This document shows positions 16,313-45,159 of a stretch of 64,000 bases of DNA, piece by piece. Within the stretch, counting starts at the first letter, position 1; each line of letters starts with the position of its first letter. The stretch lies in the NCBI GenBank assembly GCA_038501195.1, contig JBBPUQ010000003.1, positions 2,930,501 to 2,994,500 on the forward strand, in the 5' to 3' direction. Under the pieces are notes generated by a model. It saw only the letters and a program-made list of their open reading frames with translations, made no database searches and had not been told where the DNA came from. The stretch comes from Nemania diffusa (lineage: Eukaryota; Ascomycota; Sordariomycetes; Xylariales; Xylariaceae). The translations under genes and the position numbers were made by a program.

Positions 16313-18329
16313 TTAGTGAGTGCCTTCTTGACTGCGTCTCCGAATTAGGATCCTCGCTGTAGGGTCCGGATACACGTTCTCATCTGAACACATGTTGACA
16401 GGTCTGACCTGACCCTCGAGGAATCGAAAGTCAAACTGTAAAAGTAGGTGCCCTAGGATCAACTTAATCTGCTGACTAGCAAAGAAGCGCCCCGGACAAG
16501 CCAGCCTGCCGTGGCCAAAATGGAGGTTCTGACAGTCGGTCGCAGCAAACTGATACCGGTTCGCGTTTTCCGGGTGCGCTGCATCCTCGCGAAGGCGGAC
16601 CCAGCGAAAGGGGTCAAATATGGATGGGTCCCCACCCGGAAACAAGTCCGGGTCGTGGAGCACGGCATCTGATGCCATGCAGAAATGAGTGCCGGCCGGG
16701 ATACGCGTTCCGTCACTAAGCTCTATCGAGGTCCTAGCGATCCGATTAAATGCAACTGCGTTTCATAATGATTAGTTGCGGTTCTACCAATGTAGGGAAA
16801 GAGAGCATGCTGTACTAGAGAAATGAGATTGACGAGCGGGTGGTAATACGCTATCCATGCTTAGATGATGGACTTTTATACTTACTGAGAGCAGGAGGAT
16901 TCATTCGCTGGGATTCTTTGAGAAAACTGTCGAGTTTCTTGAATATTGGTATAATCGGTCGCTTCCATCCGCCATGATTGTCAAGAATATGACGCAACTC
17001 GCTTCTCAGAGGTTCAAAATAGTCGGGATGAGCACAGAGGTCGTAGATGGCATGTGTTATAGACATGGTCGTAGTATGAATCCCCGCTAGGCTTAGCATG
17101 AGCTGCCGGTGAGCTATCTTGTCCGGCTGCCCTTCAACGCTGTCCCCCATGTCCATCATCCACTGCAGAAAATCTTCGCCCTTGTCATAACATTCGGTTG
17201 CACTATTGGTCTGCTGGAGTCGGCGATACCGTATGATGGGAGAGATGATGCGTTTTGCCATGGCCACATTGTGGCGGACACGCCAGTACGAGGGTATCAG
17301 TGGCGCTACGATCGGATGGAGGTACGATGGGAGCATTCGTAGTGTCATGATGACACTGTAGGAATTCTCAGTGAAATTCATCGCCGTTAACAGCCATTCT
17401 TCGTTGCGACATGTCTCCGGCCCAACTAGTATTCGGGCTGACACTCGTGCAACTACCCGCAAGATGAGCTTGTAAATGGACACATTCGTCCATTGGTCTA
17501 CGAGATTGATCATGTTAGTATATGGCATAGTAGGTGTCAGTGGCGAGAAACATAGCAAGTACAGAAAGTGAAGGGTGAAAGGATACAGTACGATATGACG
17601 AAGTCCGAAACGATGACAAGAACAAGAGCGTGTTTTGGGTAAAGGCAGTGGGCAAAAGCAACGTACTCACCCTGGCAGTCCGGGAACTCTACACTAAGGG
17701 CGTACTCTAGCTCCTCTGTCATGAGAGGGGTCGCTATGGACAGACTTGGTGTAAGACGGTGCTGAATGACACGGCTTGGAAGGTCGCCTTCAAGAAGAAT
17801 ACTTCCCCCTGCATACTTGCCCGAGATATTCTTGATATGTGCGTCCATGGCACTGACTTGGTCCTCGGGCATGACTCGGAGTTCATCCAGGTGCCTATTT
17901 GGCACGACAAGAATATCACCATCGTTACGACGTATCCTGAAGGGCGCGTTTTTAAACTACAGACACAGTTATTAAGGGAATGCTTCTTGTGAGTGACTTC
18001 CTCTGCCTCCATCAACCAATGACGTGCCGCGTTTTCTTCTTTCCCTTTCATCATACATGTGACCTAAGATAGGTGCTTACCTTTTGATACCCCTCTTGGA
18101 TCATGGACTTGCTGCCGCTCCTGAAGCGCAGCCCTATGAGCCAGCCGGGCTCTAAGGCTGATCTTCGACCTACAAGCGGCTCTTGAGGACGAAAGAGGAT
18201 CGACCATACGCTTCGGATAACATGCACGCCAAGAAATATAAGAATGCCTGTTTGGTAAAGGGAAGCTTCACTCATGCCCTTTAGTGTATCGCCAAGAACG
18301 GAGGTCCTGAGGTTAGTCATGACATTCAT
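16313..18329 (-). CDS. Cytochrome P450-A, diterpene-oxidase-like
   Basis: Four exons on the minus strand: 18329-18081, 17956-17671, 17497-16886, 16755-16313, giving 529 aa. An N-terminal hydrophobic helix (about residues 25-42) anchors it in the ER membrane. P450 signatures: AGIHTT in the I-helix, ESQR for the K-helix ExxR, and the haem loop FGHGRLACPGR with Cys at about 469. This haem-loop style is typical of fungal P450s of the ent-kaurene oxidase/GA-cluster kind. Intron phases (0, 1, 1) match P450-B and P450-C, so the three are paralogues. Expected role is hydroxylation or multi-step oxidation of the diterpene skeleton. The start could also be the second Met at residue 4. Confidence 0.92.
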
Positions 18330-19159
18330 CTTGATCCTAGATGATATTAACGTGTAGCACAGACCAGTGAAATGCTACTCTCCTAGTGAAAATAGAACGC
18401 TGTCTTAGCGGGCCATCGAACTTATTTTCAGAGGCGCCTCATTCCCTATCCTTACTTATCACCGGGATATATAGAGGGCAATGCAACCTGAATCTGATTG
18501 TATGAGTTCAAGATTATTGCCACAACCTATAGCTGATAATTACAAGGCTAGGGGCGGGGGTTATGCTTTGAGCCTCATCCGCGGCAGCTGCTCCAAGGCA
18601 TCTCACCTGTATTCTCCTTGGTCGCGCGGAGTGAACGAAAGAGGAAGACCGCTTACCGCGCACCATATATATATGGTGGGTAACAGTATTGATAGGAAGA
18701 CAGGTTAAATACGGCGTACTGCCGGGTTGACAAATACGAACCAACTGGTGATACAGCAGGGTGGTAACGGTTGGCAAATGACGCAGACAAAGGATTCACG
18801 GCATATCACTTAGTGTGTCCGCTTCGTGGTGTGTTGCTACTCTGAATTCATTTCCTATTGGAAGCGCGGGGGTAGTTGGGGATGTGTTAGCTGCGCGGCC
18901 TCCCTGCTTATCAACCTGCACATTCACCACCTAAGTATGTCCGAGGCGAACTCGCGAACGTGGCCGTCAATCTGTAAGCAGTTCTATTCCCAGAGCCTTG
19001 GATCGACATGTATTTCGTGTTGGTCCTTACGAATGTCTCTTGCAGAGTATTTCTTGCACAGTATTCCATCTTCACCTAACCTTTCTGAGTCTAGAGTATC
19101 GATCAACCCATCAGCCCTCTCCATTGCTTGCAGTGTCCAGATCCGCAGCTCGTCCAAGT
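18330..19159. promoter_or_regulatory. Divergent promoter, P450-A / rhodopsin-like gene
   Basis: About 830 bp between divergent starts, so both promoters must lie here. A TATA-like run (accatatatatatggt, about 18662-18676) is visible. I could not pick out a convincing repeated operator. Confidence 0.4.
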
Positions 19160-20366
19160 ATGGATTCCGCACTAGACACCATACACCCGGGCGATCCTGG
19201 TCGGAAAATTGTCATTCTAGGCGTCTCGTGGACGCTAACACCGCTCTGCACCTTCTGTGTCCTTGCTCGTCTCCGCATCCGCAGCCGGCGGCCTAGTCAG
19301 CTTGGGTGGGACGACTACACAATTGTGATAGCTACGGTAGGCATTCAAGTCCCAGGCATTTTGTTGCATACGAGCGCGCTCTGGTGTCTGTGCCTTAACT
19401 GTGTGTTGACGTGACTCTCGCTAGGTCTTCCAAATATTCCACCAAGTAGCCGTTACCATTGCCTGTCACTATGGCGCCGGCATGCACGACCAAGATCTCA
19501 CTTCTGACCAGCTAGTGAACATAATCATGTGGTTCTGGATCTCCACTACCCCGTCTCTAGTCGTCTCTGTTGTCTCCAGGATATCCTCTGCCATCCTGTT
19601 GACCCGCATATTCAACAGTATCATATGGTTTAAACGGTTTCTCGTCGTCTGTACCGTCCTCCAGGGCATCGGTGGTGCGCTGGCTATCATCTCTGTCTAC
19701 ACTCAGGCGCGGCCAATCCAGAGTCTGTGGAACCCTATGGTTAAGCCCACGAGCACTGGCAACCGCCTATTCGAAAAGGTTGTTGCGAGTGGCTTTTCCC
19801 CAGGTTAGTTGACATCGAGCAACCTACAATACCCAGACTGACAGTGGGCGCGATACACAGCGGTTTTTGCGTTCACCGATCTGGCTTACGTCTTCATCCC
19901 TGTCACAATCGTATGGAGGCTTAACATGCCGCTGCGCCGGAAGATCGGTTTAATCATTGTATTGAGCTTATCCCTCGTCAGTGTTGTTGGTTCCATCATG
20001 AAGGCCGTTACCTCCGCATTCGCACTCGACGAGTTCGAGTCTAGCCTAGTTATACTGTGGGCCAATCTTGAGCAGACCATCAACCTAATAGTGAATTGCG
20101 TGCCGGCGCTGCGCACCATCATTTTGTCTGAGATTCCCATTGTGCGCTCGGTCGGCACATCACTTATTCGTCTGGTCACTAGGAGAGGCAGTGAATCTAG
20201 CCTGGGGTCAGGTCGGTCCCGTCAAAGCGCTAAGGGGTATCGCGATCTGGAAGGACAAGGTGCCATTCGTGGCTCTACCCATGAACAAGTAGAGAATCAA
20301 TCTCCCCAAGGCATCGAACTCAACACGTACAAGGCTCGGGTTCACTCGTCGAGTGAAATCGGTTAG
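19160..20366 (+). CDS. Fungal rhodopsin-like integral membrane protein
   Basis: Three exons: 19160-19336, 19425-19803, 19861-20366, giving 353 aa. Seven hydrophobic segments are present, and the motif LGWDDYTIVIA after helix 2 is the hallmark of the fungal rhodopsin-domain/SAT4-PTH11-like membrane family. The C-terminal 80 residues are polar and Ser-rich, presumably cytoplasmic. The first intron is 88 bp and the second 57 bp, both GT-AG; the frame is continuous across both. Biochemical function of the family is mostly unknown; members occur near secondary-metabolite genes and in PTH11-type signalling. It sits between P450-A and the regulator, so it may belong to the cluster, but nothing in the sequence proves this. 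Confidence 0.88.
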
Positions 20367-20519
20367 AGACACGAGGTTGGTGCTACATGGACGTACAGGA
20401 CAGAGCGCACCCAAATAGCACGAGAGCTCCAGATGTAGCAATGAAGCAGATACATATCGGATACTCAGATAGGATAGGTTCAAGTTTCATTCCCTGCGAG
20501 TATATTGTTCGAAAGAATA

Positions 20520-21924
20520 TCAAAATGCGTCGAGTGTAATGCACATGCGATCCCTCAGTTCCATCGCGATGGCCTTATGTACCGGCCATGGATGTCTGTC
20601 TATCACATCTTGAACTTTCTGGATCAAGGAAATGCACTTCCCGACACGGGCCATCAAAAGGCTGCGCAAGACGTGTATCTCGTCGTCATCATCGAGCTGC
20701 CAATGTCCGATCTTAAGATTTTGTGAATCTCGATGCTCACAGTCGTACCTTTCGCCACTACTTGTTCTCGATGATTCATGAGAGTCGGCTCTGTCATCGT
20801 TAGTGGGACTGCATATAGCTGAATCCAATTGCGACGATACCTGATGAGTCAACTCATCAGACGTAGTAGAATGCGACGAGCGGGCCTGTCTGTGAACACG
20901 CGCGCGTTTCTTGGCTCCTCCATTGGAGTGTTTGTCGGCAGACGCGCCCTCGAGGCTGCAGGCAATGTTTTTGCACATTGTCAGGATTAGCATTACGAAC
21001 TCGGACTTCGACTTGCAGGAGTGGCACTGCAAAAGTGCTTCGCAGCTAGTTAGGGCGGTCTTCAATCTTCGCAGTAGTTTGTCCATTGTGAGCGAGCCGC
21101 TTTGTAGCTCCCAGACGATGTCCGCTTCTATTGACTCATGAGATTGTAAGGCAAGATTGAGGCAGGAACATTGACTAGGACCGGAATTGAACACGAACAT
21201 TTGACGATAATCGGCGTTGAGAGTGTGCAATGGTTTGGCACCACCACTGCACTCGTCAAAGGTGATAGGCTGGCCGGACGAGTCTCTTGTAGATTCCAAT
21301 GGTAAGGATTCAAGAGGGCCACTCGTGGTGTCGCACTGAGAAACAAAGAACTGCTGAATGTCTGCCCCAGGACTTGAGCCAAAAGAAAAGTCGATGTCTG
21401 TGCCAAAAGGCAGCTCAATGTTGGCTGCTTCATCATTCCTGGCCATCACATCCACGGAGGGAGACCTCTGAGAAACTGCCCTTTTGGAGCAGGCCAACGA
21501 AGCGGCGGCGTGAGCACCAGCGTGTTGCATCCCGCTGGCTGTGGTCGCTACACCATTACGTTCTTTGGCAGGAGAGTAGGCAGTTGTGCTGGCCACCTTT
21601 GGGGCCCTTGTAGGATAGGCTTCCTTCGATGCCGTACTCTGAGATGCCTGAGAGCTAATATAGTGGCACTGAAGGCTTTTAGCCAGGCAGCGCCGGCAGC
21701 CATGCACCTCACCGGTGCACTTGGACTAGAACTCGAGATTAAACTATTGTCGCCCCTGCAGTGTTTGGGAACGCGCAACGGCAGCATACCTTCCTCGCAC
21801 GGCATGGTTCGCAAGCTTTATGGGCGGGTGGTGCGGCGCGCTTTTTCTCGAAGGGTGCATCGGTGGCTTCAAGAAGATAGGGCCCGTCGGATGATACGGT
21901 GTGCCTGAGCGTGCCAAACATCAT
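20520..21924 (-). CDS. Zn2Cys6 regulator, AflR type
   Basis: Two exons on the minus strand: 21924-21790 and 21725-20520, giving 446 aa. The binuclear zinc cluster is split by the 64 bp intron and is perfect after splicing: Cys38, 41, 48, 55, 58, 65 (CX2CX6CX6CX2CX6C). A Ser/Ala-rich linker follows, then a block around residues 220-300 (CSCLNLALQSHESIEAD, later CEALLQCHSCKSK) that matches the AflR-type regulatory domain of aflatoxin/sterigmatocystin regulators. Such proteins switch on the cluster that carries them. It is divergent from P450-D across a 1.1 kb shared promoter, consistent with being the pathway-specific activator. The DNA site is unknown; AflR-like proteins bind palindromes such as TCGN5CGA. 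Confidence 0.92.
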
Positions 21925-23031: not shown

Positions 23032-25017
23032 ATGAGCTACCACGCCGTCACTGGCGCCCCTCTCCTGTACGCGGCAATCAAATCAGTATTTGGTCTTTCA
23101 CTGATCTGGGTCGCGCAATTTTTATTCCATGGGGTTTTGAATCGCCTGCGTTTCCGCAGGATGAAAGCCCAGGGACTGGCGAGTTGAATTTCTGACCCTT
23201 CTGCTTTGATCAGGAGGTCATGTGCACGAGAAATAGTACGGCTGACTGGAGCATAGCCAGTTCCCGAGCCGCATTCGCTTTTGTTGGGCCACCTCCTTCT
23301 CATGAAGAGTCTTAGAAGGGATCTCCCAAAGGACGCTCACGACACATATGCACAGCAAAAGCTGGTCATGAACTGGCAAGAGTACTTCCCCAACCAGTCC
23401 AAGTGCCCGCCCATCATATATCTCGACCTGTGGCCGTTCATGTCGTACCCTCTCATTCAAGCCATAAGCCCCGAGGCATGCTACCAGATGACACAGCAGA
23501 AGCCTCAGCCTAGACACCCCATGTTCGGATGGGCCATCTCGCCCGTCACAGGGGGGCGCGATCTCATTGCTATGGATAGCTCCAGTCACCGCCTGTGGCG
23601 TTCGCGATTGAATCCCTGCTTCTCCTTGAGGAATTTGACTTGCCTTGTTCCGATTTTGATCGAAGAAATCGAAATCTTCGTTCGCAAGCTACGGGAAGAG
23701 GCTGGAACTGATGGGGCCTTTGGTGCTTTGTTCCCCTTATATCCGAAGACCGTCAATCTAAGTTTCGACATCATAATGCGAGCGGCGCTGTAAGTTCGTG
23801 GACCATCTCTATCTGCCGATGCCCTCAGAGATTCAAGTTTGCAGCTAACACAAGGTCAGAGATCTCCGAGCCCATGAGCAGACAGATGGCCCGGGACCTC
23901 TCTTAACGGCAATGCGACACTTGAATACTTATGTGAAGGGCGAAAATATCGTGGCTAGGCTGCAACGCATGATGCCGACATACAGACGTGACCTGGCCGT
24001 CCATACTGGCATTATTGACAATATCCTGCGCCCTTATATTTTATCGCGCACCCACGTAGTCAGCCAGGATACTAAGCCGAAGGTAGTTATCGATCTTGCA
24101 TTGGGCATAATACGAGGAGAGGATCCCCAGCAAGAATCCTCCCAGCTCTCATCAGAGCTTGTCGATATCGTCATCTCACAACTAAAGCTTTTTATCCTAG
24201 CCGGACACCATACTACCGCCCAAGCGATGTAAGTTGACCGCGATTTACTTATGCATCATGTTCAGATACGATAGCCTTTTCTCTCCTATCTTCCTTTATA
24301 CCTTATACTAAAGCACGTATATTATCTGTAGCTGTTGGGTCCTATATGAAGTCTATAGCAGGCCCGAAGTACTCGAGCAACTCAGGGCCGAGACTCTCCG
24401 GGTCCTTGGACCTGACGCCAGATCCCTCCTGAAAGAAAACCCGCATCTAATCAACGAGCTACGTTACGCGGCCGCCGTCATCAAGGAGACTCTGCGCCTT
24501 CACCCTCTCGCTTCAACTCACCGCCAAGGCAGCGATGAGTTTGATATTACAATCGACGGCTTGACATACCCGACTTTGAATTCCTTAATGGTCACAACTC
24601 CATCAGCTGTGCACTCTCGCTCCGATATATGGCCACGTGCTGCAGAGTTCTTGCCCGAACGATTTACGGTACCAGAACACGATCCGCTCCATGCTCCGAA
24701 GAATGCATGGCGTACGTTCGAGCTCGGCGCTACAAGGTGTATAGGCGAGGAACTAGCCATGATTGAAATGAAGCTGATCCTAACGTTCACAACTCACGAA
24801 TTTGACATTGAATTCGACTGGGTGGGATGGAAGAAGATGAGGTACGTAATATGCTTCTTATACTATAGTGTTACGTCATCCAAGACTAATTGGTCGTGAT
24901 TGATATAGAAACGATAGCATGCCACCTGAACGCATTAATGGTGAATTCATGTATCGTACTGGCAGTGGTATCGGATCAGTCAAGGATGACTTACCGACAC
25001 GCGTTCGGGTGAGATGA
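23032..25017 (+). CDS. Cytochrome P450-D
   Basis: Five exons: 23032-23178, 23257-23789, 23860-24228, 24332-24841, 24909-25017, giving 555 aa. An N-terminal hydrophobic anchor lies at about residues 8-35. P450 signatures: AGHHTT (I-helix), ETLR (ExxR), PERF, and haem loop FELGATRCIGEE with Cys at about 486. It resembles the sterigmatocystin/benzoate-type fungal P450s rather than the A/B/C group, so it came from a different family. Intron 1 uses a GC donor (GCGAGT at 23179) with a ctgac branch and an AG acceptor; only this splice joins QGL to PVPEPHSLLLGH in frame. Expected role is an oxidation distinct from those done by P450-A/B/C. Confidence 0.9.
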
Positions 25018-25745: not shown

Positions 25746-27834
25746 TCACAAGAAAAATCCTCCGTTTCGCTGCTTCTGAAAGACACCAGTGGGGTCGTAT
25801 TTTGTAGCGACCGCTTTCATATACCTTCCATTTTCTGTACCATAGCTCTCGATAACCCTCTGTGAAGCTCCAGCATCGTTCATAAAGATATAGCCAAGCA
25901 GGTTATCTTCTTGGCCAGCCACTGACCGTATTGTATCGCCTAGAGACAATACATGCTGCTCAGACATGCTGTCCATGGACTCATGAAGCCATTCGCCAAG
26001 GCACGCCCACCCTTTGGACACGCTTTAGTCAATTCCATTCATCGTCACCCGGTGAATCTTAGAGTTTAGCTCACAGGTTTGTGACGTGCTGCTTAGCCCT
26101 AGGCTATTGCCGCCTCTACGTCCCTGACCAATTTCGGCCACATATCTAGGGATAGCTTGTATCGTATATGACAAGTCAGTTTGGAGGGTGTTGTTTCTCA
26201 GCAATGCGATATATCGTTTATGAACGTCTACGTAGAGTTGTGGGTCGACCTTAGTCGTTACTGCGTTTATTGCTCGCCTGGACGGTTAGATCTTGGTCAG
26301 CGTCATCCTCTGTGCCTTCGTGGGTCGGGACAAGAGGGCCACAATGAGAGATTGGCTTCGGACCTAGCTGGTAAAACAGTCTGGCCGACATGGTCTAGTA
26401 CAGGGACAAGGTCCAGAATTGGACCATCTGTCGTCCGCACAAGGGGTGCAATGAGGCTTTTCAGCTGAAAAAATTCCTCAAATGCAGGGGGCCGAGTCAG
26501 TTCTTGCCTGGCATTTAAAAGACCTGCGACCATAACACCAGCCCTGACGTTAAGAAAGAAGCCGATTCGCGGATCACTCTCCATCGCCAATTGCAGTCGC
26601 GCCGTCGCATGTAGAACGTTGAAATAATCAGTTGCATTGTATATGTTGATTGTATACTGAGCCGGTACTGGCGCGTATGTTTCAATGTCGAATCGGGTGA
26701 CCACGCCTAGGCATCTACACGTCAATCTTCTCGCGCACAGACACGGACAGATATGGGGATCGTGAGGTTATAGGATCACGAACCAAAATTACCGCTGCCG
26801 CCCTTCAGAGCTCGGTAAAGATCTGGGTTTTCTTGGGTGTTGGCATGGACGATCGTTGAGTTGGACAACACGACCTATATATGCAGTCAGTATAGCATTG
26901 GAAGTTCCAGGCTATGTAGGATGGGAGACCTCGAAGTTAACGACACTGTCAACAGCCATTCCGAAGAGGCTGGGGAAAAATGACAACCCCCCTTTATTTG
27001 AAACGAACATCATTAGTGTCTTTTCGCAACACGTAACAGCACAGCATTGAGTCGAGGTTCCGAGTAGGGGGCAAACCTCCTAAAAGTAAACCTGAGATGC
27101 CCACGGAGCCATGCCTCCCGCCGATGACATATCGGCCCCTCTCCTGGGCGAATTGATACGTTTGCTCCCATGTCTTCCCGGGGCCAACCCGCAATATGCC
27201 ATCGGCACTGAGTGCGATCGAATTGAGGCCTTGAAGGTCGACAAGGATGCCGGAATTATTGATGCTGGCAAAGTTGGCATTGGGGTTATGCCCTCCGGCT
27301 CTGATGGCGAATCTAGCACGGTGGGCTTTAATGACTCTGATGACTGCAGCGACCTCGAGGTGGTCGGTAGGGCGAACGAAACAAGCAGGCCGGAGGCATG
27401 CCGTTTGAGACCTGTGGGGAATGTAATAGATTTCTGTCAGCGCGACAGCCGACTTCATTAGGTAGGTACTCGGTAGTGATACAGGAAATCAATCATTTCA
27501 CTTTGTCTATCACCTTTACTATAGGGAAGGTATGGTGGGGGTTGGGGGGGCGGTACCAATTGAGTATCACATGTTTTTCGTATTGTGCGTCTCTCGGCAT
27601 AAGAACCTGTCCAGCAAACAGTTCAACAAGCAGCCCGCAGGCTATCTGAGCACCTGAACGGGATTTCAAGCCTTCATCTCGGCTACTGCTATTCCTCTCT
27701 GCGAAGCACTGGCCTCTCAAAGACATCCCAGGATAATCACCCAAATCCGGAAAGGCACAAGTTAACGCGCTAGCTGTATCTGCTACTACCTGGCCCACCC
27801 CGCCAAGTGTAAAGAGCACTAAGTAAGGCCACAT
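25746..27834 (-). CDS. BBE-like FAD-linked oxidase 1
   Basis: Seven exons on the minus strand: 27834-27557, 27411-27077, 26991-26930, 26874-26784, 26706-26364, 26277-26075, 26011-25746, giving 525 aa. A cleavable signal peptide (hydrophobic residues 2-18) sends it to the secretory pathway. The FAD-binding (PCMH) fold shows RAGGH with His at about 134, the usual site of covalent 8-alpha FAD linkage. The second attachment Cys of bicovalent BBE enzymes is missing: that loop reads GGRHGSVGISG. A C-terminal BBE segment is present but ends GGFFL. Exons 2, 3 and 4 are exactly as long as those of flavin oxidase 2, and all intron phases agree. Likely role is oxidation or dehydrogenation of a diterpenoid alcohol or ring. 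Confidence 0.9.
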
Positions 27835-29273
27835 CCCGCCGTCTGGGCTCGTCGATCGGTTGCTTATACCTCGGAGAGTCCAGCTATCAACAGATAATGT
27901 CGCTACGGATATGTCTCATCGGTAAAGTGTCACTGCGCCTTACGTCAACCAAGCTTATATCGATTATGTTTACTTATATATATTTACTCCCTGGTATTAG
28001 GCAAGGCTTGGAATAGTCTAATTTTAGTCCCGTTCCGATCACATACGCCATTTCATGCAGGCTTGCCAGGGAGTATCTAGAGGCGGCATACACTCCATGC
28101 TACCTATACTAAGTCAGCCAAGAACGTTTCTGTATATGCCGCCCGGCCCGTACCGCAGCGGGAAGATAGTGGGTCGAAACGCGGAGCTTCTAATTTAGTT
28201 CGGTGTGGGTGACCGCTGCGCCAACGGCGCACCGACCTGTACAATATTAGCTTATATTGTAGCCTTACCACCTACAGGTGCGACCTGCAGTCACGCTTCG
28301 ACTGCAGGGCGGTCGGATCGCGTACTTATGTAGATAGTACAGGGCCACCTGCCTCTTTACAGATTGGTGGTGTATCCTATTATAGAATGAGATAACTATG
28401 TGCTTTACGTAGGCCATAAGGGTACTCAACTGCCTACAGTAAGGTATCCATCTACATAGAGGGGGGCAGATGCAAGTGTGAAGAAGAAGGTGTGGGGGTA
28501 TTAAGACCACTACAGTTTTAGCAGCTTGTCTGTATGACTACAGTCCTTTATTTCCAATATAACATCCTTTTTTCCTTGTCAAGTCCTTTCTTGTAGAATC
28601 ATCCGAGCATAGCCATAAGTGGCCATGCTCACTAACCTTCGTACCACTTCCTTCACACCTCTCAGTACTTATAACTATATTACTAGTAGTGTTGGGTCGT
28701 TCCATGCGATATCTCGTGATCGCAAAATAACCGTAGTAGAATGCGTTGCAATTAATATTGATTGATGATGATTGATTAAGGTCGGGAAGGATCCCGTGCC
28801 TTGCTACATACCTATGCTAGTTATAGTGGTACCCTAGCCGTGTACTGCTTCCAGGTAACCCACAGTGAATAGGTAGTATCTCCTGAATATCAATCAAGAA
28901 ATACTCAGTAAAAAATATTTCAAAATAAATGCTAATAATCTAGGGCCTAGAAAAAGGTCTATTCAGCTAATAATTCTCTTTGGTCCCACGAGGTCCATGA
29001 TCCTTTTCTTCTTTTCATTTCAGAGGAATCAGTCCTACTTGTACCTGAAGGCTTTTAGACTGTATCTAGGGCGCGTATGCATATAGCCAGTTAATAGCTT
29101 CCTGTATGTACATGGCCTTGGCGTTCTTGGCCGTGTGACATTTATTATAACGATTAGTATATCGTTATACTATATATAGTTTTTCTTTTAAGCATGTTTC
29201 CTTGATTAAAGCTAGCATACATCGGCTTTTAATTAAAGCTGCTCTACTCTCGATTTAGTGTCTCTAAAGCGTA
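27835..29273. other. Spacer between oxidase 1 and diterpene synthase
   Basis: 1.4 kb holding the promoter of flavin oxidase 1 on the left and the terminator of the synthase on the right. A tRNA-like A-box/B-box pair lies at 28171-28223 (listed separately). No protein gene is supported. Confidence 0.45.
28171..28223 (-). repeat. tRNA-like A/B box pair (possible SINE relic)
   Basis: Read on the minus strand, TGGCGCAGCGGT matches the Pol III A box (TRGCNNAGYNGG) with one gap, and GTTTCGACCC about 35-40 bp later resembles the B box (GGTTCGANTCC). The flanking acceptor and T-stems do not pair, so it is not a working tRNA. A tRNA-derived short interspersed element or a decayed tRNA is the best guess. 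Confidence 0.3.
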
Positions 29274-32200
29274 TCACTTAATGCGAATCCCGACATCCTT
29301 TAAGATATAGATCTGACCAAATAGACATGTGACATTGATGAAAAAGCCTAACCCGCCTTCAAGGAGCTCTCGACATTCCACCGCGCTCTCTTCTAGCAGT
29401 GCCGCCAAGGCGATTTCAAGCCCCCGACGTTCGTACTGCGCTAACCACGTCAGCTCAGATTTCATCGTCTGCTCCCCACGCAAATCCCTGGTCGCAATTT
29501 CACAGACTGGTGCGAACTCTGGGAAGTTGAGAGAGTTGAGATTGCATTCTTCGAGGTCGCGGCGTAGAGAGCCGTAGTCATTTTCCAGGCGGCACAGGGT
29601 GGCGAGATGACGACATAAGTCTGCGGCGAGATATTTTGTGCGTGCAGAACCGAACATGTCGGTTCGATTGAGGTGTACAGAAGGGAGCGGAGAATGTGAG
29701 GAGGAGGATGAAGAGTAAAGAAGCGCATTGAAGAAGACGAACGAAAACGGGCAGGACGTGTGGTCGGCTGATGTGTTATGGACCCAGTGGAAAAACGTCT
29801 GGCCAGCGTCCTTGTACTCCAAGGGCTTTTGATTCGCGCCGTTACCACTGACGACGTCGACCTGGCTGGCAAATCTGTAGTTATCGGCGGCCTGAGCCAC
29901 ATGCGCCAACAGGAACGTTTTGAGCTCATATGCTAACCACTGTTGGTAGTACTGGGGGCTCTTGAGCACTGCCTGATGTCGTAGCACATACTTGACGACA
30001 TTAGTGAGCTGGTCTGCCATTCCTATCAGTCGACTGGTCCGCTGTAAGTCGACATTGTCCTCTACCTCAGTGAGTATGGCCGGCCGTGTTTCCTTCTCGA
30101 AAACATGATTGATCAGATGGGCGATAGCCTGAGTGTCGGGTGTTGTCCCACCGTCGGTGAGCCGCTCCATATACTCGTCCACCAAGAAATTGAGATCAGA
30201 CAAAAGCATCATTTCTCGAAGAAGAGAAAGAGTTATATGGTAGCCGGAACAGGTGGCCGCGCATACAGTGAATGCAAGCGCGATGATGAGTTTGTAGTTT
30301 CTATCCCCTTTGCCATTCTCAGGGAAAATTGTCTTGTGATGGTGCTGTGTGGACAATAGGTAGTAGCACGCCTGTAACTCCGAAATCTCGCGTACCGGCC
30401 GACTCAGTTTCCGCCCTGGGAGAGTCTGAGATACAAGGCAGCCCACCTTCTTCATTCTCTCTCGCAGGTTCTCGTGTATTTGGTAGAGACTAGTCGTGTG
30501 CAGATGAGAACCATCTACGGCATCACTGGGGATTTCTACCAGCGCGGCCGCGAGACAGTAGGCTTCCGAGAGTGTGTCAGAAGCATAGTTGACTTTTTCG
30601 ACCCATATATGCTGGCCGCGTGGCCAGTCGTTCCGGTTCTGGAGAAGAAATCGTTTACCTTGAGCAAAAACGTCCTCGACAGGAGTGTCGCGCAATTGAC
30701 GAATGACCGATAGGCTACTCAGGGCTGACAGCGTCATGATGGCATATGAGGTCGTTTCGCATCCTCCCCACGCGCCATGATGGTCCTGCTGGAGGATTAC
30801 TTTCTTCAGCAGGTGTAAGCAGACAATGGGTATATCGTGCTGAAGCTTTGGTGAGAGATGAAAGAGTCTGGAGACGATGTTTTCTCGCTGATATAGAAGC
30901 ATGTAGGCTTCTGCTAATAGCATGGTCCAATAGAATTCGGACCTATTCTGTGGGATATCAGCTGACGTCAAAAAGGCTTATTATGCCTTAGTTTCACACT
31001 TACCCACTTGTCTTGAACTTCACCTACGAACACACGTTCGGTCAGAAATAATGCCGCTTTACAGATCTGAGCAATGTGGCTTATGGCATTTTTCGATTTG
31101 AGAAGACAGATAAGCACATGACAGTTTGCTGTGAGGCTTGGATTGCGCTCTCGCGGATATGTCATGAAGTGGTTCTCGCTTTCGAAAGCCGAGAGCAGGC
31201 CATCGACGCTAGGTTGCTGACCTAGCCCATATAGTGAAATAATGACTTTAGCCGTGTCGTCAGCGTCGGGAAGGGAACCGGGAGCTACGCAAGTCACAAT
31301 AGTCAGTAGGCTGTTCGCATCTGGCCATGCGCTCGCTACAATGAGTACTCGCCAAAGCCAGCAGTTCCTTTCCCACCCCGTAACGTCTGCTGCAAGAAGT
31401 GAACTATCGGAGAAGAACTCGATTCTTCAACCTGAATGCCAGCACTGATGAGAGTCGCGACGACCTGCTCGAATTTGGTTGTTAGCGCTGCAGATGATTG
31501 TTGGCTGGCCAGATTTGGGCCTTTCGGAAAAAGGGAATGAATACGAACCCATGACAGCTCAAAGGTTGACGTGGGCCAGGCACATGGTACGCTTCCATCC
31601 CCCTGTCCGGGGCCGTTGTACACCACGTTTCTCAGGTAGGCTTCGGCTGACTCATCCCACGACGATGTGTTCATCAGATAGGCAGCTGTGGATGACGGAG
31701 AACTCATCATTGACCCGTTGGGCTCCAGCCAGCGAGATAGTCCGTTGAAGTCAACTTCACTGCCAACGAAGGCTTCTAGGGAGTGATGCAATGTAGATCG
31801 AATCTTGTGTAATGATCCTAGTGGTATTTTCGACAGCTTCTCCAGTCGTATTTGCTTCAACACGTCTAAGTTCGGAGCATTGACACAGACCCCTTCGTCG
31901 GCGAGAAGTTCTAGATGTTGTATGATAAGGATCTCGAACCCAACCTGGTCGACTGCGCTGATGTCGAGATCGTCAAGTAGCTCTGTCAGGGCAAGCCCTG
32001 CCGTTCTACTCCGCTCTGCCCAGTCTGAGTTGCCGGGATCCGCTCTCATGTGCTTTCGAAGAGCCAGCAGGGCAGCGGAGGTGTTCAAGATACCATCAAC
32101 CTGTGAGGCATACGAGCCCCAGGCTCCAGATGGTAGCTGGGATTTGAGTATGAAATCGAAGCATTCGGGAAAAAGCCATTGCGCATCCTCATCATGCTCG

Positions 32201-32355
32201 TATAGCTCACCGGCTTGCATTGGCCTTCGTACCATCGACAGCCAGGAAGTGTCGTAAATAGAGGATGACATGGACCCGAACGAGCCATCTCGCTGACACT
32301 GATTTGCCAGCTTGGCAAGGAGCGATTGCGCCTGCTGGTTGAATGAGGTACACAT
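29274..32355 (-). CDS. Bifunctional diterpene synthase (class II + class I)
   Basis: Three exons on the minus strand: 32355-31353, 31284-31004, 30947-29274, giving 985 aa, close to the ~950 aa of fungal CPS/KS-type enzymes. The class II (copalyl diphosphate synthase) domain carries PDADDTAK with the DxDD motif at about residues 341-344. The class I half carries the metal-binding DEYME at about 685-689 and NDYGSLRRD at about 884-892, followed by NLNSLNFPEF. Both sites look intact, so it should convert GGPP to a labdane-type diphosphate and then to a polycyclic diterpene. DEYME rather than DEFFE suggests a skeleton other than ent-kaurene, possibly aphidicolane-like; this is inference. Intron 1 uses a GC donor (GCGAGT), which alone gives frame through the DxDD region. 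Divergent from P450-B. Confidence 0.95.
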
Positions 32356-35191: not shown

Positions 35192-35599
35192 AACAGTCGG
35201 TGGGTTTTGATACGCTTGGTAACTTGGAAGTCATCGTTAGTCTAATATTCCAAATAAACACTCTCCCTATACTTCTTCTCTTATCCAATAACCGCGTATC
35301 TCTCCTACAGAGTAAGCTGGTCGCTCGCTTGCTGAGTAGATGTCAACGTAAACACCAACCATATTCGTCCTTCCCGATAGCCAGATCGGCTAGAGTGTAT
35401 GTCAGACTGCCAGTGGTGAATGCAACATGAAGACTGCGCCTCTGTGCCCCAAGCTGCCGTAAGGATTTAGAACACCGTGTCTGTGATGCGGCAACACGAG
35501 AAGGAATCGCTCCAGGCTGACGATGCCAAAGTCTGACAACCAGAGGTATTTAATGCCAATCCAGTACCGGATCGATTCGTCACCTTCACCACCCTCGAC
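35192..35599. other. Short spacer
   Basis: About 400 bp between P450-B and flavin oxidase 2, same strand. It holds a terminator and a promoter. No distinct motif was recognised. Confidence 0.4.
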
Positions 35600-37615
35600 A
35601 TGCCAGTCATGGCCGCGCCAACTAAGATCTTGCTTCTTTTAGCCCTCATTTGGGCAGACTATGCAACTGCCCTACTCTCTGAAGAACTGGTCGATATCGT
35701 GGTCGGCACCTCTGGGCCGCAGGCACTGTTAGACAGCATAACCGAGTCAGCCAATCTTATCGACCATACTGCTAGCTTATCCTACACTATATCAGGTTCG
35801 GAAACAGAATGGAGGGCAGCCATTGCGTGTAAGGTTGTCGCTCTGGTTTTGGAAAGCCATCAGGTGTACCAGAGCCCGTCCGCTCAGCTCTACGAGGATG
35901 AAGAAGTCCTAAACTGGTGAGCCTTGGTAGCAGGCGGTGTCATCAAAGCCATTGTCTTACATTTTCAGGTCAACTACATGCTGGCTTGCTGCCAATTGCT
36001 TTATCCGCCCTCAAAATGCTGTTGAAGTTGCCCTCATATTGAGTATTGTGAAGACGACAGGAGCTAAGTTCGCCGTGCGTAGTGGAGGGCATAATCCCAA
36101 CCCTGGGTTTGCCAGTATCGAGAGTGATGGCGTGTTGATAGACTTACAAGACTTGAAACTCCTATCTATTGATCCAGAAGGGATACTATCCGCTGGTCCA
36201 GGTCACCGCTGGATTGAACTCTACAATTTTAGCGAGGACCATGGCCGGACCGTCAAAGGAGGTCGCACGGCCGACGTTGGCATTCCTGGGTTCCTCCTGG
36301 GAGGTGAGTGAAACAGCGGTGACTTCCACGACTTCAAATTATATAGCTAAAGCACGCTTGCAGGTGGAATGCCATACTTCCCTTCGATTCATGGTTTGGG
36401 TGCAGACAGCATCATCAACTACGAAGTATGCCCTACTCTCCATCGTGCCTTGTTGTATTCCTCAGACGGTCTATCATCGTTAAAGGTCTTGACTGACTGT
36501 TATTGTTATCCCAGCTAGTTCTTCCGAACTCGACGTTGATCCATGCCAATGCGCAGCAGAATCAGGATATATACAGTGCTCTCAAGGGTGGGGGCTCTAA
36601 TTTTGGTATGTGTTTGGGAAGCCCATACGCTTCTATCAGCACAAACTGACTAAGAATACTCAAGGGATCGTGACTAGATTTGATTTAGAGACATATCCAT
36701 TGCTCCGCGCTCAGTATGTTGTCAACCTCTACAACGCATCGGATTATGTCAACATATTCGCTGCCACCGTGAAGCTTCAACGCTTCATGGAACTAGACCC
36801 GAAGATCGACGCATATGTGACTATGACGCCTACGGTGGCTGTCGTAGGCATGTTCTACGCAGACTGGTTGGCTGAAAGACCCGCGGCGTTTGATGCATTT
36901 TACGAGCTAGGCAGCCTCATTGGGCCCATGGTGCCGCTGACAAATGGCACGGTCGCCAGCCTAGCTGCTGACCTGCAAGAACACACTCCGATGTACAATG
37001 CACGGTACGTGTCTTTCCGAATGCCGTGCCTCGGATGCGCGTGTAATGCTGACTTCAGGGGTTACAGGAGATACATCGCAGCAGCCACAACCTTGGTAGA
37101 CTCCGGACTCTATCTTGAGAACCATAGACACTTCTTACAGGTGCTAGAGAACAGCAAGACATCTCTCGCAGCTAACATGTCTTATACAATTCAACCCGTA
37201 GCATCAGCAACGGTGCGCCAAGGAAACGAGCAACGGGGAAACACACTAGGCCTCGAGGAAGTCCCACAAACATGTAAGTGCATCTGTTTCCCCTGATCTT
37301 TGCATGATAACACGTGGGCGCGCTGATATGAGTGATCTAGGGTGGTCGATGGTCGTGGAATGGGCAGAGCAGGTGGATGACGGCATGGCACACGACACGT
37401 TACATGGGTTGCTAGGCGCGCTCGACAGGCTAGCTGAGGATAGACATCTCCTAATGGAATTCCGCTTCATGAACGATGCCAACCTCGAGCAGGATGTTCT
37501 AGGCTCGTACGGAACGGCCAACCTAGGTCGGCTCCGCTCCGCCGCGGACGCATCCGATCCGGAAAGGTTGTTGCAAACCTTGCAGAACGATGGGTTCCTG
37601 TTGCGTGGCTTGTGA
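35600..37615 (+). CDS. BBE-like FAD-linked oxidase 2
   Basis: Seven exons: 35600-35916, 35969-36303, 36364-36425, 36515-36605, 36665-37004, 37059-37273, 37341-37615, giving 544 aa. Signal peptide in the first 25 residues (ILLLLALIWADYATA). RSGGH with His at about 147 is the covalent FAD site; the bicovalent Cys is replaced (GGRTADVGIPG), so attachment is probably single. The C-terminal region has FMNDANLEQDVLGSYG, matching FMNDAGASQRVIESYG of oxidase 1. Exons 2-4 (335, 62, 91 bp) are identical in length to those of oxidase 1, proving shared ancestry. The proteins have diverged strongly outside the FAD fold, so they may act at different steps. The start may be either Met1 or Met4. Confidence 0.9.
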
Positions 37616-38621
37616 CGGAATCTCCGGCACATGTATAGCATCACCGGATGTAACCGTCAACTCGTATTCATCATAGTTATGGGGGGTGGGATCTACCATT
37701 TTATCTATCGGCCACTTGTTAAAAGACCAATACGCCGTAATACCAAGATGTAGTCGATAGCCACTTTCGACAAAATCGTAGCTCAACATGCATCTTCTGT
37801 GACAGCCTTTGCGTGCAGACCATGACCCAAAGTACGGAGTACCTATATACATATATTACGGAATAAGGGGGGTATTACAAGATCATGATCAATTATGTGA
37901 TGGTCGTATCAAAATCGCCTGAGAGATTATGTCAGAAACTTAATATTATGAGACATAATCCCGAAAAGACCCCCTCCCCCTGCTATCTGAGCACTTCAGG
38001 TAAGCTTGTATTCAGCTACCGGCGGCTTGGAACCCCTGTCGGGACTGCCGCCGCCTGAGTTGGAGAGGAGTATTACATACGGTCCTGGTAATTAATCTCC
38101 ATTCCATTTTATTCCCATTGTACTCTACAAGGCATCTCCTTCAAACAGACAGGGGAGTTCAAAATATACTCCAAAAGTCTAAGGCTGCCGGTTTCTCTTT
38201 CTGCCCTTGCTGCCTAAAGTAGGCATCGTAGCGTGGCAGTGCTTAGGGGAAGCTTGAGGGGTTGGCAGACGGACGCAGCCTCATCTGGAAGCCGGCAAAG
38301 CACCTATCATGTCCATTCATCAGGCAGCGGGCACCACCAAACAAGACAGGCCGTCAGAGGTTGTGTCGCACCGGCGTACCAAACGCCGGGAGAGCCTACG
38401 AGTCCGTCCTTCTATTCGTTGGTCCCCGCCACCACGTCCTTGTTTTCCTTGTCCTTCTTTCTGCACGGCGAGTTCAGCCATGTTCGCAACCTTTGAAACG
38501 GAGACATACTTTTGAACACTTCATTCCTTGACGTGTCTCTGGTATTTTCAATCCAGAACCCCGTCCCATAACCACCACAACCACCACGATCAGAACAGGC
38601 CCCGCGCTTTTCAACTCCGAG
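37616..38621. other. 1 kb spacer
   Basis: Between flavin oxidase 2 and the AKR, same strand. Short overlapping ORFs near 38230-38530 lack coding features. It holds the terminator of the first gene and the promoter of the next. Confidence 0.4.
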
Positions 38622-39682
38622 ATGGCAACCCCACCCCGAATCATCGCAGGCAGTGGCACCTGGGGTCATAACGTGGACACCGACGAGGCTAAACAGCTGA
38701 TGAAAGATCTCGCGGCCATCGATGTCAATGAGATCGACACCGCTGCCATCTACCCATTCAGCAATCCGACCGTCTCAGAGCAGATCATTGGCGACAGCGG
38801 TCTGAGCCATCAGGGTTGTGTCATCGACACAAAGATCATGTGGTTTGATAATGGCAAGGGCACTCTTACAAAGGAGAATATTGCCAAATCCATCGATGAG
38901 TCCCTGGCTCGATTGAAAGTGGAAAGGGTACTTGCCCGTCGCAGTCATTGGAAACGACTCTGCCGGTGGTGTTCACTGACCCGTATGATATTAATGTATA
39001 GGTTCATATCCTTTATGCCATCGGCCCAGACTCTACAACCCCACTCGAAGAACAGGCCGCTGCATTCGATAGCGTTTATCGCCAGGGCAAATTCGAAAAG
39101 CTGGGCATCTGCAACTTCTCCCCTGAAATGTTAAAACAATTCGTCGAAATTGCAGAGCGCGAAGGCTTCGTGAAGCCGAGCGTGTACCAGGGCCAGTACA
39201 ACCTCTTGTGTCGCACATATGAGGACGTGCTTTTCCCCTTTATTCGGGAAAATGACATCGCCTTCATGGCCTTTTCGCCTCTCGCTCAAGGTATGCTCAC
39301 TGGCAAGCTCACATTCGCCGACAGCCCCGACCAGGATCTGAAGGGCACGCGCTTTGACACGGCCAAAGACAACATCTACGGGCTCAATGCCAGGCGCTGG
39401 TATGACAAGCCATCCTTTCACAGTGCCATTAGAGAGCTAAAGGCATTTTGCGAGCCTCATGGCATCGACACAATTGATGCCGCGATGCGGTGGCTCCGAC
39501 ACCATTCAATCCTGGACGGCACTAGAGGGGATGGAATCATCATTGGCACTAAGAACAAGCAGCAAGGCGACAAATGCATTTCAGGCGTCCAAGCTGGCCC
39601 GCTTCCCCTGGCTCTTGCTGAGCAGATCAACTCTTTATGGAGCGGAGTCGCAGAGGACGCTGCAAGCATCTTGTCTTATTAA
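38622..39682 (+). CDS. Aldo-keto reductase (aflatoxin-aldehyde-reductase-like)
   Basis: Two exons: 38622-38927 and 39002-39682, with a 74 bp GT-AG intron; 328 aa, the normal AKR size. Catalytic tetrad visible: Asp39 (EIDTAAIYP), Tyr44, Lys71 (DTKIMWF) and His104 (VHILYAIGPD). FSPLAQGMLTGKL and a C-terminal IIIGTKN segment, which normally contacts the 2'-phosphate of NADPH, agree with the AKR7/aflatoxin B1 aldehyde reductase group. It should reduce an aldehyde or ketone with NADPH in the cytosol. Lying between flavin oxidase 2 and P450-C on the same strand, it probably acts on an oxidised diterpenoid intermediate. Confidence 0.93.
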
Positions 39683-40329
39683 TTCCGCTAATCTACTTAT
39701 AATGCTGGCCCCGTATCGAGGGTAGTCTATTTATGACTGTATCTAACAATGTCCGCTAATGCAATGTAAAATCGCCTCGTGACATTTATGAGCTTAAGTC
39801 ATAGGCATGAGCAAGGTGAAGTGAAAGCATCAGGGCAATCGTAGGCTGGTTCTATAGTAATCATCAACTATAACTTGCCAAGTTAACTCTCACACTAGGC
39901 TTAGTATGCGCCTCTAGTTAGCTCTAGGCTGGGGAGTATGAGACGGTATGAAAAATTACTACCCTAAAGTAACAAATAGAGCTCGCATCTATTAACTGCC
40001 TGCCGTGCTTACGACCGTTGGTGTCTATGGATGTGCACGGCCTCAGTTGACCAGGTTGGTCGTCGGAGGGAACAAAAATGGAACGGAATCGGAGGCAGCA
40101 CAAGATGGAACCCCCCGAGAGTATCAGAGTATCTATCGAGGCGAGCAAGAAGCGAGATCGGTATCTGCTGGCTCCCCTCCTCAATCACTCGGAATGCTTT
40201 GGGCTCCCGTTTGTTTGTTCACAAGTCCGCAAAGGCTTAGCCGCAGAAGACATTCGTTGAGCTGCTACCTATGCTGTACCCCCTTTCGCACTGAGTTAAT
40301 ACTTTTTGCCCTAATACCATTCTGTTCTG
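39683..40329. other. Spacer between AKR and P450-C
   Basis: About 650 bp. It should hold the AKR terminator and the P450-C promoter. Three overlapping chance frames near 40005-40355 have no support. Confidence 0.4.
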
Positions 40330-42260
40330 ATGTCTTCTCTCCGGGATCACGATGATGGCTTCTTTTTGCCCAAGAGTATTGAGAGCTATTCTCTCTTTAA
40401 AGGAGAGTACTTTAGCTGGGACTCGCTTAGCCAGTTTCCCGGGATACAGATCACCGCCCTTTTAATTGGTTCCATCCTCATTTTACTCTCGCTGAAACAG
40501 AACGGTAAAAGGGTCCCCGGGGCGCCTATTCATGGACACCGGTACTGGTGGGAACCTACTATTTGGTCACAGATGAGATTCGTCTTTGGAGCCCAAGGTA
40601 TCGTTGCAAGTGGCTATAGAAAGGTGACATGACACACAACCGCCAACGAAGTGCCACTAGGGTCCAACAGCTAACCCTCGAATCACAGTTCAAGGACAGG
40701 CCCTTCGTAGTACAACGATACGATGTCGATATCACAGTCATGCCAAACAGGTATCTAGAGGAGCTGAGACTCATACCGCCTACCAAGCTTAGTGCGGTGA
40801 GAGCTCAAGTCGCGGTGAGAGGAAGCTCATTTGACGCTTGGAAGCGAGACAGCAGGCTAAAGAGACGTAGAATCTTTGCCATAAGTGGACCTATACGAAC
40901 GTCATGACCGAGTCGAACCTCCATTTCCGTGTTATACAGAATAAGCTCATTGCTGAGCTGTACAAATATCTCGATACGGCGAAGACCGAGCTAGATTACG
41001 CCTGGGATAAAGACGTACCTAGCTCCCAAGGTATTCACACGACTATCTCATCCTTCATGATCGAGGTTAGGAAAGCATTAATACAAAGGCTGACATCCAT
41101 TGCCAGACTGGCAGGAAGTTGATCTGCAGAACGTGATCCGCATGCTGGTAGCACGAATGTCGGCAAAGGTATTTCTCGGCAACCCTGTTTGTAGGGAAGA
41201 AGAGTGGCTCAGGCTATCTATCGAATTTTCGCTCGATGTATTTACTACTGCTTTCACCCTCCGCCGTTTCCCACCGTGGACTCATCCAGTCGTTGCGCAC
41301 TTGATACCGTCGCGCTACCGCGTCAAGAAGGACCTGGCGACCGCCGAGAGAATCCTTAGCCCCTTGATGAACAAGCACATTGATGCCGTTCAGAAGAGAT
41401 CTCAGGGTCAAAAGGTGGACGAGGAGGACACGCTTCTGAACTGGATGGTAGATCATGGTACGGCTGAAGAAAACAGAGTCGACAAGATGTCTGCTCGCCA
41501 AGCGATCCTGACTCTCGCTAGCATCCACACTACATCTATGGCCGTCGCTAACATCGTTTTCGACTTGTGCGCCCATCCAGAATGGTTCTCAGTTCTAAGA
41601 GATGAAATCGATGAGATTACCACCGACATAGGGCCAGTCTGCTCCTCTCCCGAAAGCGGTTCTAAGCATTGGCTGGCACGTCTAGAGAAGCTCGACAGTT
41701 TTTTTATCGAGAGCCAAAGGGTCAATCCCCCAATTCTTCGTAAGCGCCACAAATCACTCCATCACTACTTCCCTATTCACCCAAGCTACTTTAAGGAGAT
41801 AGGGGCTCAAACATGACTTATAGTTGGCCCTCAGAGAGTCGCAATGGAGCCGATCACGCTGAAAGACGGCACGCACATCCCGAAGGGGGCTAGGATCTCT
41901 TGGGCTGGGCACCATCATTTAAACGACCCCGCCGTCACCCACCAGCCCGACGTTTTCGACCCGATGCGGAGTTATCGCGCTCGCCATGCCTCACCGGACC
42001 AGATGAATAAACACCTTGCTGGGCAGACCAGCCCAGACAACCTAGCTTTCGGATACGGGAAGCTAGCGTGTCCGGGACGAGCCTTTTCGGTAGGCGAGAT
42101 CAAGCTGATCCTAGCCCGGCTGATTGTGGGTTACGATTTCCGCTTCCCCAACGGCAAAGGTCGACCAATCAACATGTTCGCCGACGAGAATGTGTTTCCA
42201 GATCCCGCCGCTAACATCATGATGAAGCGGCGGAGCGGTAAGGGCAGCCTGACCTCCTAG
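40330..42260 (+). CDS. Cytochrome P450-C, diterpene-oxidase-like
   Basis: Five exons: 40330-40623, 40689-40814, 40871-41030, 41107-41739, 41824-42260, giving 549 aa. Membrane anchor at about residues 39-56. Signatures: ASIHTT, ESQR, and haem loop FGYGKLACPGRAFS with Cys at about 487. Three introns coincide in place and phase with P450-A and -B. The extra 56 bp intron (40815-40870) is unique to this gene; without it the frame runs into a stop and the conserved helix is lost. It is closest to P450-B by eye (haem loop, TESNLHFRVIQNKL against TSDLHFRAVQDKI), so a duplication of B and C is likely. Last recognisable gene of the cluster. Confidence 0.92.
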
Positions 42261-44613: not shown

Positions 44614-45159
44614 GGAAGCCCGTTAACTGAACTAGGGTCAGCGTATAGCTAGATCTGAATTATTCGATATCTGCGCTTTCGCATCATTTTGAGCAACATA
44701 GGGGACGACTAAAGTTTATCAACCCGGTTTCAACACGGCTGCTGTCGTTTCTCCTACTAGATAGTGGTTTCATTTGTGACAGAGCTGAACGGTAGATTTG
44801 CAAACCTAGAGAGAGCCTGCATTCGGTTGAAGAAAGGGGCTGGTGGATGACGGATAGATTCTATACCAGAAGAGACCTTCTACTAGTATCTATTTTCTTG
44901 AGATGAATAACGAGGCGGAGCTTACGTGTGGTGATCTTTCGGGGATATATCGGAAAGGCGGCTGCTTGTTTAACGGTATACCTAACCTCCAGCGGGGATG
45001 GTTTATGACCTTGACGATTACGTGATTAGGTTTCTATATTTGAACCGAGTACCTGCTATTATTAACTATTATATATATCCCTACATGTGCAATAGTAATC
45101 TAAATCGACCCGGAGAGTCCAGACCGAATGCACTTGCCCTTGGCGATGGCTACAGTTAA

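What the first reader, a model, noticed from the sequence alone, without database searches (positions are those of the whole stretch)
16313..42260. Candidate undescribed diterpenoid gene cluster
Seen: a two-domain diterpene synthase, four P450s, two BBE-like flavin oxidases, an AKR and an AflR-type regulator in 26 kb. Known: DxDD plus class I motif enzymes make labdane-derived diterpenes in fungi. Inferred: a heavily oxidised diterpenoid made by a synthase, three paralogous P450s, one unrelated P450, two secretory flavin oxidases and an AKR. The combination with two BBE-like oxidases is not one I recognise from gibberellin or aphidicolin clusters.
Basis: partly seen in the sequence, partly recalled or inferred. 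Interest (0 to 1): 0.88.

Follow-up and report, generated by a model that had tools for sequence, protein, structure and literature searches.

The report
Uncharacterised diterpenoid cluster in Nemania diffusa
A wood-inhabiting fungus carries a compact set of genes that looks built to make and heavily oxidise a diterpenoid, a class of natural product that includes hormones and antibiotics; the product is unknown, but similar oxidising genes recur beside different diterpene-making enzymes in other fungi.

Summary
Assembly statistics identify the genome as Nemania diffusa YAFEF818. Motifs, homologs and a predicted fold support a class II plus class I labdane-type synthase. It is one of five found in the genome, and the only one with a BBE match within 20 kb, the next at 20.4 kb. 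No GGPP synthase match lies in the window.

Corrections: no AflR domain detected; the AKR has Ile for the catalytic His; BBE1 is open only if weak-donor introns are spliced.

The combination is not unique. Seven open-literature searches for such clusters found no characterised match. Best reading: an uncharacterised, probably functional cluster for an oxidised labdane-related diterpenoid, mosaic in origin; skeleton undetermined.

The parts
16313..18329 (-). P450A, 529 aa, 4 exons (18081-18329, 17671-17956, 16886-17497, 16313-16755); paralog of P450C and P450D
   Evidence: (draft model); AGIHTT, ESQR, FGHGRLACPG motifs; 45-64% by exon to a P450 beside another diterpene synthase at C3:4.78 Mb, the closest in the eight stretches fetched
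   Evidence: model; PF20684 E 2.6e-30
20520..21921 (-). Zn2Cys6 transcription regulator, 445 aa, 2 exons
   Evidence: model; PF00172 E 4.2e-5; no family at E up to 1 on the long exon
23032..25017 (+). P450B, 555 aa, 5 exons with a GC-AG first intron; not close to A or D
   Evidence: PF00067 E 1.5e-49 on the draft model; final model
25746..27834 (-). BBE1, BBE-like FAD oxidase, 525 aa, 7 exons; introns placed by analogy with BBE2, several weak donor sites
   Evidence: 65% to P0172 of Xylariaceae sp. FL1272
29274..32355 (-). bifunctional diterpene synthase, 949 aa, 4 exons (31549-32355, 31377-31464, 31004-31284, 29274-30947); DADD305, DEYME649, NDYGS848
   Evidence: 99.4% to N. diffusa P0001
33228..35191 (+). 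P450C, 551 aa, 4 exons
   Evidence: (draft model); best-match relative P0351 (66%) in Xylariaceae sp. FL1272
35600..37615 (+). BBE2, BBE-like FAD oxidase, 541 aa, 7 exons, hydrophobic N-terminus, RSGGHN motif
   Evidence: PF01565 E 5.8e-20; 99% to N. diffusa P0121
38622..39682 (+). aldo-keto reductase, AKR7-like, 328 aa, 2 exons; Ile where AKRs have the catalytic His
   Evidence: model; PF00248 E 1.4e-44; alignment to 1gve and 2clp
40330..42260 (+). P450D, 549 aa, 5 exons
   Evidence: 75% and 82% relatives in Monosporascus sp. GIB2 and Xylariaceae sp. FL0255 (draft model); 99.8% over 434 aa to P0241

Best explanation
A biosynthetic gene cluster of Nemania diffusa for an oxidised labdane-related diterpenoid. 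Inferred route: GGPP, supplied by a synthase encoded elsewhere, is protonated and cyclised to a copalyl diphosphate by the class II half (DADD), then ionised and cyclised further by the class I half (DEYME, NDYGS) of the same protein. P450D, P450C and P450A add oxygens to the hydrocarbon, probably in several steps each. The two BBE-like flavin oxidases turn resulting hydroxyl groups into carbonyls or trigger ring closure. The AKR-like protein and P450B act late or not at all. A Zn2Cys6 regulator in the cluster switches it on. Shown here: the genes, their families, catalytic motifs and the two-domain fold of a 99.4% identical relative. Inferred: every reaction, the order, co-regulation, and the product. 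A guess at the skeleton (about 0.35): a tricyclic isopimarane-type.
Against: No expression or product data. No shared promoter motif was found. No GGPP synthase match lies in the window. The AKR lacks its catalytic His and BBE1 has weak splice donors, so some members may be inactive. The isopimarane guess is weak: the genome has another synthase (C4:4.146 Mb) that is 79% identical to P0004, one of the seven Xylaria synthases in this clade, while the window synthase is 46-48% identical to those seven; the structural matches do not tell products apart; and the only diterpenoids named for Nemania in the passages I read are guanacastanes, a different skeleton, from Nemania sp. EL006872 (PMC11858462).
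Confidence: 0.75

Rival explanations
1. Only the right-hand part (BBE1 or the synthase to P450D, about 25.7-42.3 kb) is the diterpenoid cluster; the left part (P450A, rhodopsin protein, regulator, P450B) is a neighbour or a second cluster.
For: P450A is the most divergent of the three paralogs (34-40%) and resembles a P450 at another diterpene synthase locus more (45-64% by exon); P450B is not close to the others; no shared promoter motif. None of the relatives' contigs that I compared tests the left-hand genes, since only synthase, BBE and P450D were used as database queries.
Confidence: 0.3
2. A silent or decaying cluster that no longer makes its end product.
For: AKR with Ile for the catalytic His; weak donors in BBE1.
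Against: All ten frames are open as modelled, and the synthase and BBE2 are 99% identical to proteins of a separate N. diffusa assembly, where both sit on a contig of the same length, 120,328.
Confidence: 0.15
3. A known pathway such as gibberellin or aphidicolin biosynthesis.
For: Same synthase architecture and several P450s.
Against: P0114 (named aphidicolan-16-beta-ol synthase) and P0084 (named pimaradiene synthase pbcA) fall outside the 59-sequence half (support 1.0) of a midpoint-rooted tree that holds this synthase; identity to each is 34%. No characterised gibberellin synthase sequence was compared. Gene content differs from those clusters as I recall them.
Confidence: 0.04

Closest known systems
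Bifunctional (class II plus class I) labdane-related diterpene gene clusters of fungi, such as those for gibberellins and aphidicolin (recalled; Phomopsis amygdali labdane clusters seen as a reference in PMC8403587)
   Same: One two-domain synthase with DxDD and a class I motif, surrounded by several P450s and other genes
   Different: Two BBE-like oxidases, an AKR-like protein, a rhodopsin-domain protein, and no GGPP synthase match in the window
labd cluster of Talaromyces sp. HDN151403 (PMC10744899, passages read)
   Same: Fungal labdane pathway with several oxidising P450s
   Different: Its synthase joins a class II cyclase to a prenyltransferase; it has a phosphatase, an SDR and an aldehyde dehydrogenase; the words berberine, FAD and aldo-keto do not occur in the text
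Putative cluster of Monosporascus sp. GIB2 (DL765_004607 to _004609; uncharacterised)
   Same: P450D relative (78%) and BBE1-like oxidase (50%) with consecutive locus tags beside a bifunctional synthase
   Different: Its synthase is only 34% identical and in a different clade, with P0105

Membership tests
Fungal bifunctional labdane-related diterpene synthase | Class II DxDD motif | tested here: met
   DADD at 305; D-x-D-D in at least 102 of 109 aligned sequences
Fungal bifunctional labdane-related diterpene synthase | Class I metal-binding motifs | tested here: met
   DEYME at 649, DExxE in at least 93 of 109; NDYGS at 848, N, D and S invariant in 39 sequences
Fungal bifunctional labdane-related diterpene synthase | Class II and class I folds in one chain | tested here: met
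Fungal bifunctional labdane-related diterpene synthase | Converts GGPP to a cyclic diterpene | not testable with these tools
   Needs expression and GC-MS
BBE-like FAD oxidase | FAD-binding PCMH-type domain and a flavin-linking His | tested here: met
   BBE2 PF01565; BBE1 43% to BBE2 over 475 aa; GGHN motif in both. That this His links FAD is recalled for the family and not shown
Aldo-keto reductase, AKR7-like | Catalytic tetrad Asp, Tyr, Lys, His | tested here: not met
   Asp, Tyr and Lys present; His replaced by Ile in the alignment to 1gve and 2clp; the tetrad is recalled. The overall family match is strong (PF00248 E 1.4e-44)
AflR-type regulator | Zn2Cys6 domain plus AflR domain | tested here: inconclusive
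   Zn_clus only; no Pfam match at E up to 1 on the 401-aa exon; a divergent domain could be missed
Cytochrome P450 | I-helix, ExxR and heme-Cys motifs | tested here: met
   I-helix and heme-Cys motifs printed for all four, K-helix ExxR for A and D; ETLR of B and C read by eye in the sequences

The most novel reading that the evidence does not exclude
A P450D-type P450 and a BBE-like oxidase form a portable two-step oxidation cassette that has moved as a unit between distant diterpene cyclases: it sits with one cyclase clade in Nemania and with another in Monosporascus, so the same functional group is installed on different skeletons.
Probability: 0.35. Interest if true: 0.6.

Novelty: new variant of a known kind. 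Interest (0 to 1): 0.42.

Why it matters
It gives a defined, testable gene set for an unknown diterpenoid in a public genome. The recurring P450 plus BBE pairing beside different cyclases offers a way to ask whether fungi diversify diterpenoids by recombining cyclases with ready-made oxidation modules, and to assign a function to BBE-like oxidases in labdane-type pathways, for which I found no worked example in the open papers searched.

Tried and rejected
BBE1 as a pseudogene: suggested by in-frame stops in tblastn and a poor automatic model; set aside when introns placed as in BBE2 gave one open frame. The 977-aa draft of the synthase kept an in-frame 84-nt intron; replaced by 949 aa, matching P0001. 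Searches used draft models.

Shared promoter motif: none above shuffles (best 8-mer in 4 of 10 promoters, reached by 24 of 60 shuffles; best 7-mer in 6, reached by 11 of 60; best gapped word in 9, reached by 25 of 60). TCGN5CGA sites, recalled as AflR's: none in the seven intergenic stretches scanned. A sigma-70 type promoter scan was uninformative for a fungus.

Rhodopsin proteins as dedicated partners of diterpene clusters: 4 of 5 synthases have a match within 12 kb, against 0.059 of random places, 14 of 90 P450 loci and 15 of 53 BBE loci (radius chosen after seeing the data, match lists capped). The window protein is not specially related to the others, so I dropped it.

Papers: ten searches, seven of them aimed at diterpenoid clusters, found no characterised cluster with this gene set; the library holds open-licence papers only. 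The SonI lead was searched by species name with no pathway paper in the listing. A review of Diatrypaceae (PMC11376284, section 17 read) names two candidate pimarane cyclases of Eutypella and that section describes no tailoring genes. Passages of PMC13293291 and PMC11611012 gave nothing to the point.

Limits: the homolog lists show the best 120 of 243, 341 and 194 proteins. Same-contig statements rest on equal contig lengths within a species, picked out by eye, or on neighbouring locus tags; I did not read those contigs, and best matches were not tested reciprocally. One row (P0169, named Madurella) shows the same length, 111550, as the FL1272 rows, so the FL1272 inference carries some doubt. 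The tree used 108 of the 120 listed synthases, those of 850-1100 aa, plus the window's.
Full report
Where it is. The window is G000:C3:2930501-2994500 of a 55,621,613-base fungal assembly in 16 contigs. Three contig lengths (7,158,893 for C1 and 3,935,343 for C10; 4,970,375 for C5) equal the maximum, N90 and N50 printed for Nemania diffusa YAFEF818, an endophyte from Artemisia argyi roots (PMC11320954, whole text read). The synthase is 99.4% identical over 949 aa to N. diffusa P0001. So the genome is that strain's assembly or a copy of it; the paper counts 19 scaffolds and 55,636,603 bases, the held copy 16 and 55,621,613, and the paper prints 39.9% GC where this window has 48%.

What is there. 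Ten gene models in 26 kb, from left to right: P450A (-), rhodopsin-domain membrane protein (+), Zn2Cys6 regulator (-), P450B (+), BBE1 (-), diterpene synthase (-), P450C (+), BBE2 (+), AKR (+), P450D (+). The models came from a home-made gene finder and were corrected by homology-guided splicing for P450A, C and D, by hand for P450B and BBE1 and by comparison with P0001 for the synthase. All are open from ATG to stop as modelled. Pfam, run on nine draft models (BBE1 not included), identifies P450, fungal rhodopsin, Zn_clus, FAD_binding_4 and aldo-keto reductase domains, and nothing for the synthase.

The two flavin oxidases. BBE1 and BBE2 are 43% identical over 475 aa. I first took BBE1 for a pseudogene because of in-frame stops. 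I then placed its six introns where BBE2 has them; each begins with GT and ends with AG, exons 2, 3 and 4 have the same lengths as in BBE2, and the result reads 525 aa without a stop. Among the proteins fetched, P0172 is 65% identical. Several of its donors are weak, so transcripts are needed. Both have a hydrophobic N-terminus by eye; no signal-peptide program was run.

The AKR. It is nearest among PDB chains to aflatoxin B1 aldehyde reductases (AKR7; 1gve, 6.2e-45), and aligns Ile where they have the catalytic His. It may be inactive or altered.

Is it a cluster, and is it unique? BBE plus a P450 of this family share a contig in 24 of the 40; synthase plus BBE in 9; synthase plus P450 in 15; all three in 4 (Monosporascus sp. 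GIB2, Penicillium angulare, Pseudoneurospora amorphoporcata, Sordaria brevicollis). Fifteen of the 40 contigs are over 1 Mb, where sharing is weak evidence. Neighbouring locus tags are stronger: DL765_004607/8/9 (synthase, P450, BBE), ACEQ8H_008085/6 (BBE, P450), RRF57_004582/7 (BBE, P450), BCON_0023g00290/310 (BBE, P450), N7456_007118/21 (P450, synthase), FOCG_18115/7 (synthase, P450). Closest to the window: Xylariaceae sp. FL1272 with BBE2 69%, BBE1 65% and P450C 66% on one contig length, and Xylaria acuta with BBE2 60%, BBE1 60% and P450D 77%; no synthase appears on those two contig lengths in the 120 listed. So the two-BBE composition seems to recur in the family.

Within the genome. Searches with P0093 and P0001 found five bifunctional synthases: this one, C4:1.459-1.462, C3:4.780-4.783, C4:4.146-4.149 and C5:4.513-4.516 Mb. 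P450s of the same family lie near each of the others. Only this one has a BBE match within 20 kb; for the others the nearest listed match is 20.4, 25.6, 90.9 and 1290 kb away (the BBE list is a lower bound). The synthase at C4:1.46 Mb has a polyprenyl synthase match 3.6 kb away; this cluster has none in the window.

Mosaic origin. The window synthase groups with P0001, P0002 and seven Xylaria synthases (support 1.0). The synthase at C4:4.146 Mb is 79% identical to P0004, one of those seven, while the window copy is 46-48% identical to them, so the window copy looks like a diverged duplicate. None of the seven Xylaria contig lengths appears among the 120 listed BBE or 120 listed P450 hits (by eye). 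In Monosporascus sp. GIB2 the P450D relative (78%) and a BBE1-like oxidase (50%) sit beside a synthase of another clade (34%; P0093 with P0105, support 0.997; tree distance 3.26 to the window synthase against 0.80 to P0105). P450A resembles a P450 at the C3:4.78 Mb locus (45-64% by exon). This fits a cluster assembled from parts, and possibly a P450D plus BBE pair that moves together. Against that: the P0093-like synthase of this genome (C4:1.46 Mb, 48-56%) has a P450 only 28-42% like P450D's Monosporascus relative and no BBE match within 20 kb, so the pair does not follow that clade everywhere; uneven evolutionary rates and incomplete hit lists could also give the pattern.

Mechanism. See Best explanation: GGPP to a copalyl diphosphate to a cyclic diterpene by one protein, oxidation by three related P450s, carbonyl formation or ring closure by BBE-like oxidases (a range of such chemistry is reviewed in PMC11375781, passages read), with roles of P450B, the AKR-like and the rhodopsin-domain proteins open. 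Isopimaranes and nor-isopimaranes are reported from Xylaria species (PMC9609704, passages read), which is my only reason to favour that skeleton.

Known or not. Ten full-text searches, seven of them aimed at diterpenoid clusters, found no characterised cluster with this gene set. The Hypoxylaceae survey PMC8403587 (passages read) reports that labdane clusters vary by species, with four in Hypoxylon rickii, so several such clusters in one xylarialean genome is not unusual. N. diffusa DSM 116299 yielded cytochalasins (PMC11858462, passages read); those passages report no diterpenoid from it, and name guanacastane diterpenoids from another Nemania. Verdict: a real, uncharacterised cluster; a variant of a known kind; moderate interest, mainly for the recurring oxidation pair.

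Noticed in passing
window 38622-39682: The AKR-like protein has Ile in place of the catalytic His of aldo-keto reductases (YAIGPD where AKR7 has YLHxPD); an inactive or altered enzyme.
   Followed up: partly
G000: C3:2.96, C4:1.46, C3:4.78, C4:4.15, C5:4.51 Mb: Five bifunctional diterpene synthases in one genome; four of five have a fungal-rhodopsin (PF20684) match within 12 kb, more than the P450 or BBE backgrounds, but the window's copy is not closely related to the others.
   Followed up: partly
window 40330-42260: P450D is 99.8% identical over 434 aa to a protein labelled Hypoxylon argillaceum (P0241): a misnamed genome, or a recent transfer.
   Followed up: no
window 28120-28320: A short repeat, tRNA-like by eye, between BBE1 and the synthase; seven other partial matches at six places in the genome; ARAGORN (bacterial settings) finds no tRNA in the window.
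   Followed up: partly
window 44001-47000: An AT-rich stretch (GC down to 0.35) just right of the cluster, a possible boundary.
   Followed up: no
window 6785-8605: Reading frames that look like an MFS transporter, only weakly matched in Pfam (E 0.065 on one exon), about 8 kb left of the cluster; not included as a member.
   Followed up: no
G000:C4:4313327-4315143: A paralog of P450D, 55-65% by exon to the Monosporascus P450 used as query, 165 kb from the nearest synthase match.
   Followed up: no
rows P0122, P0169, P0172, P0351: A Madurella-named protein is listed with the same longest contig, 111550 bases, as three Xylariaceae sp. FL1272 proteins: chance or a labelling fault in the source.
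   Followed up: no
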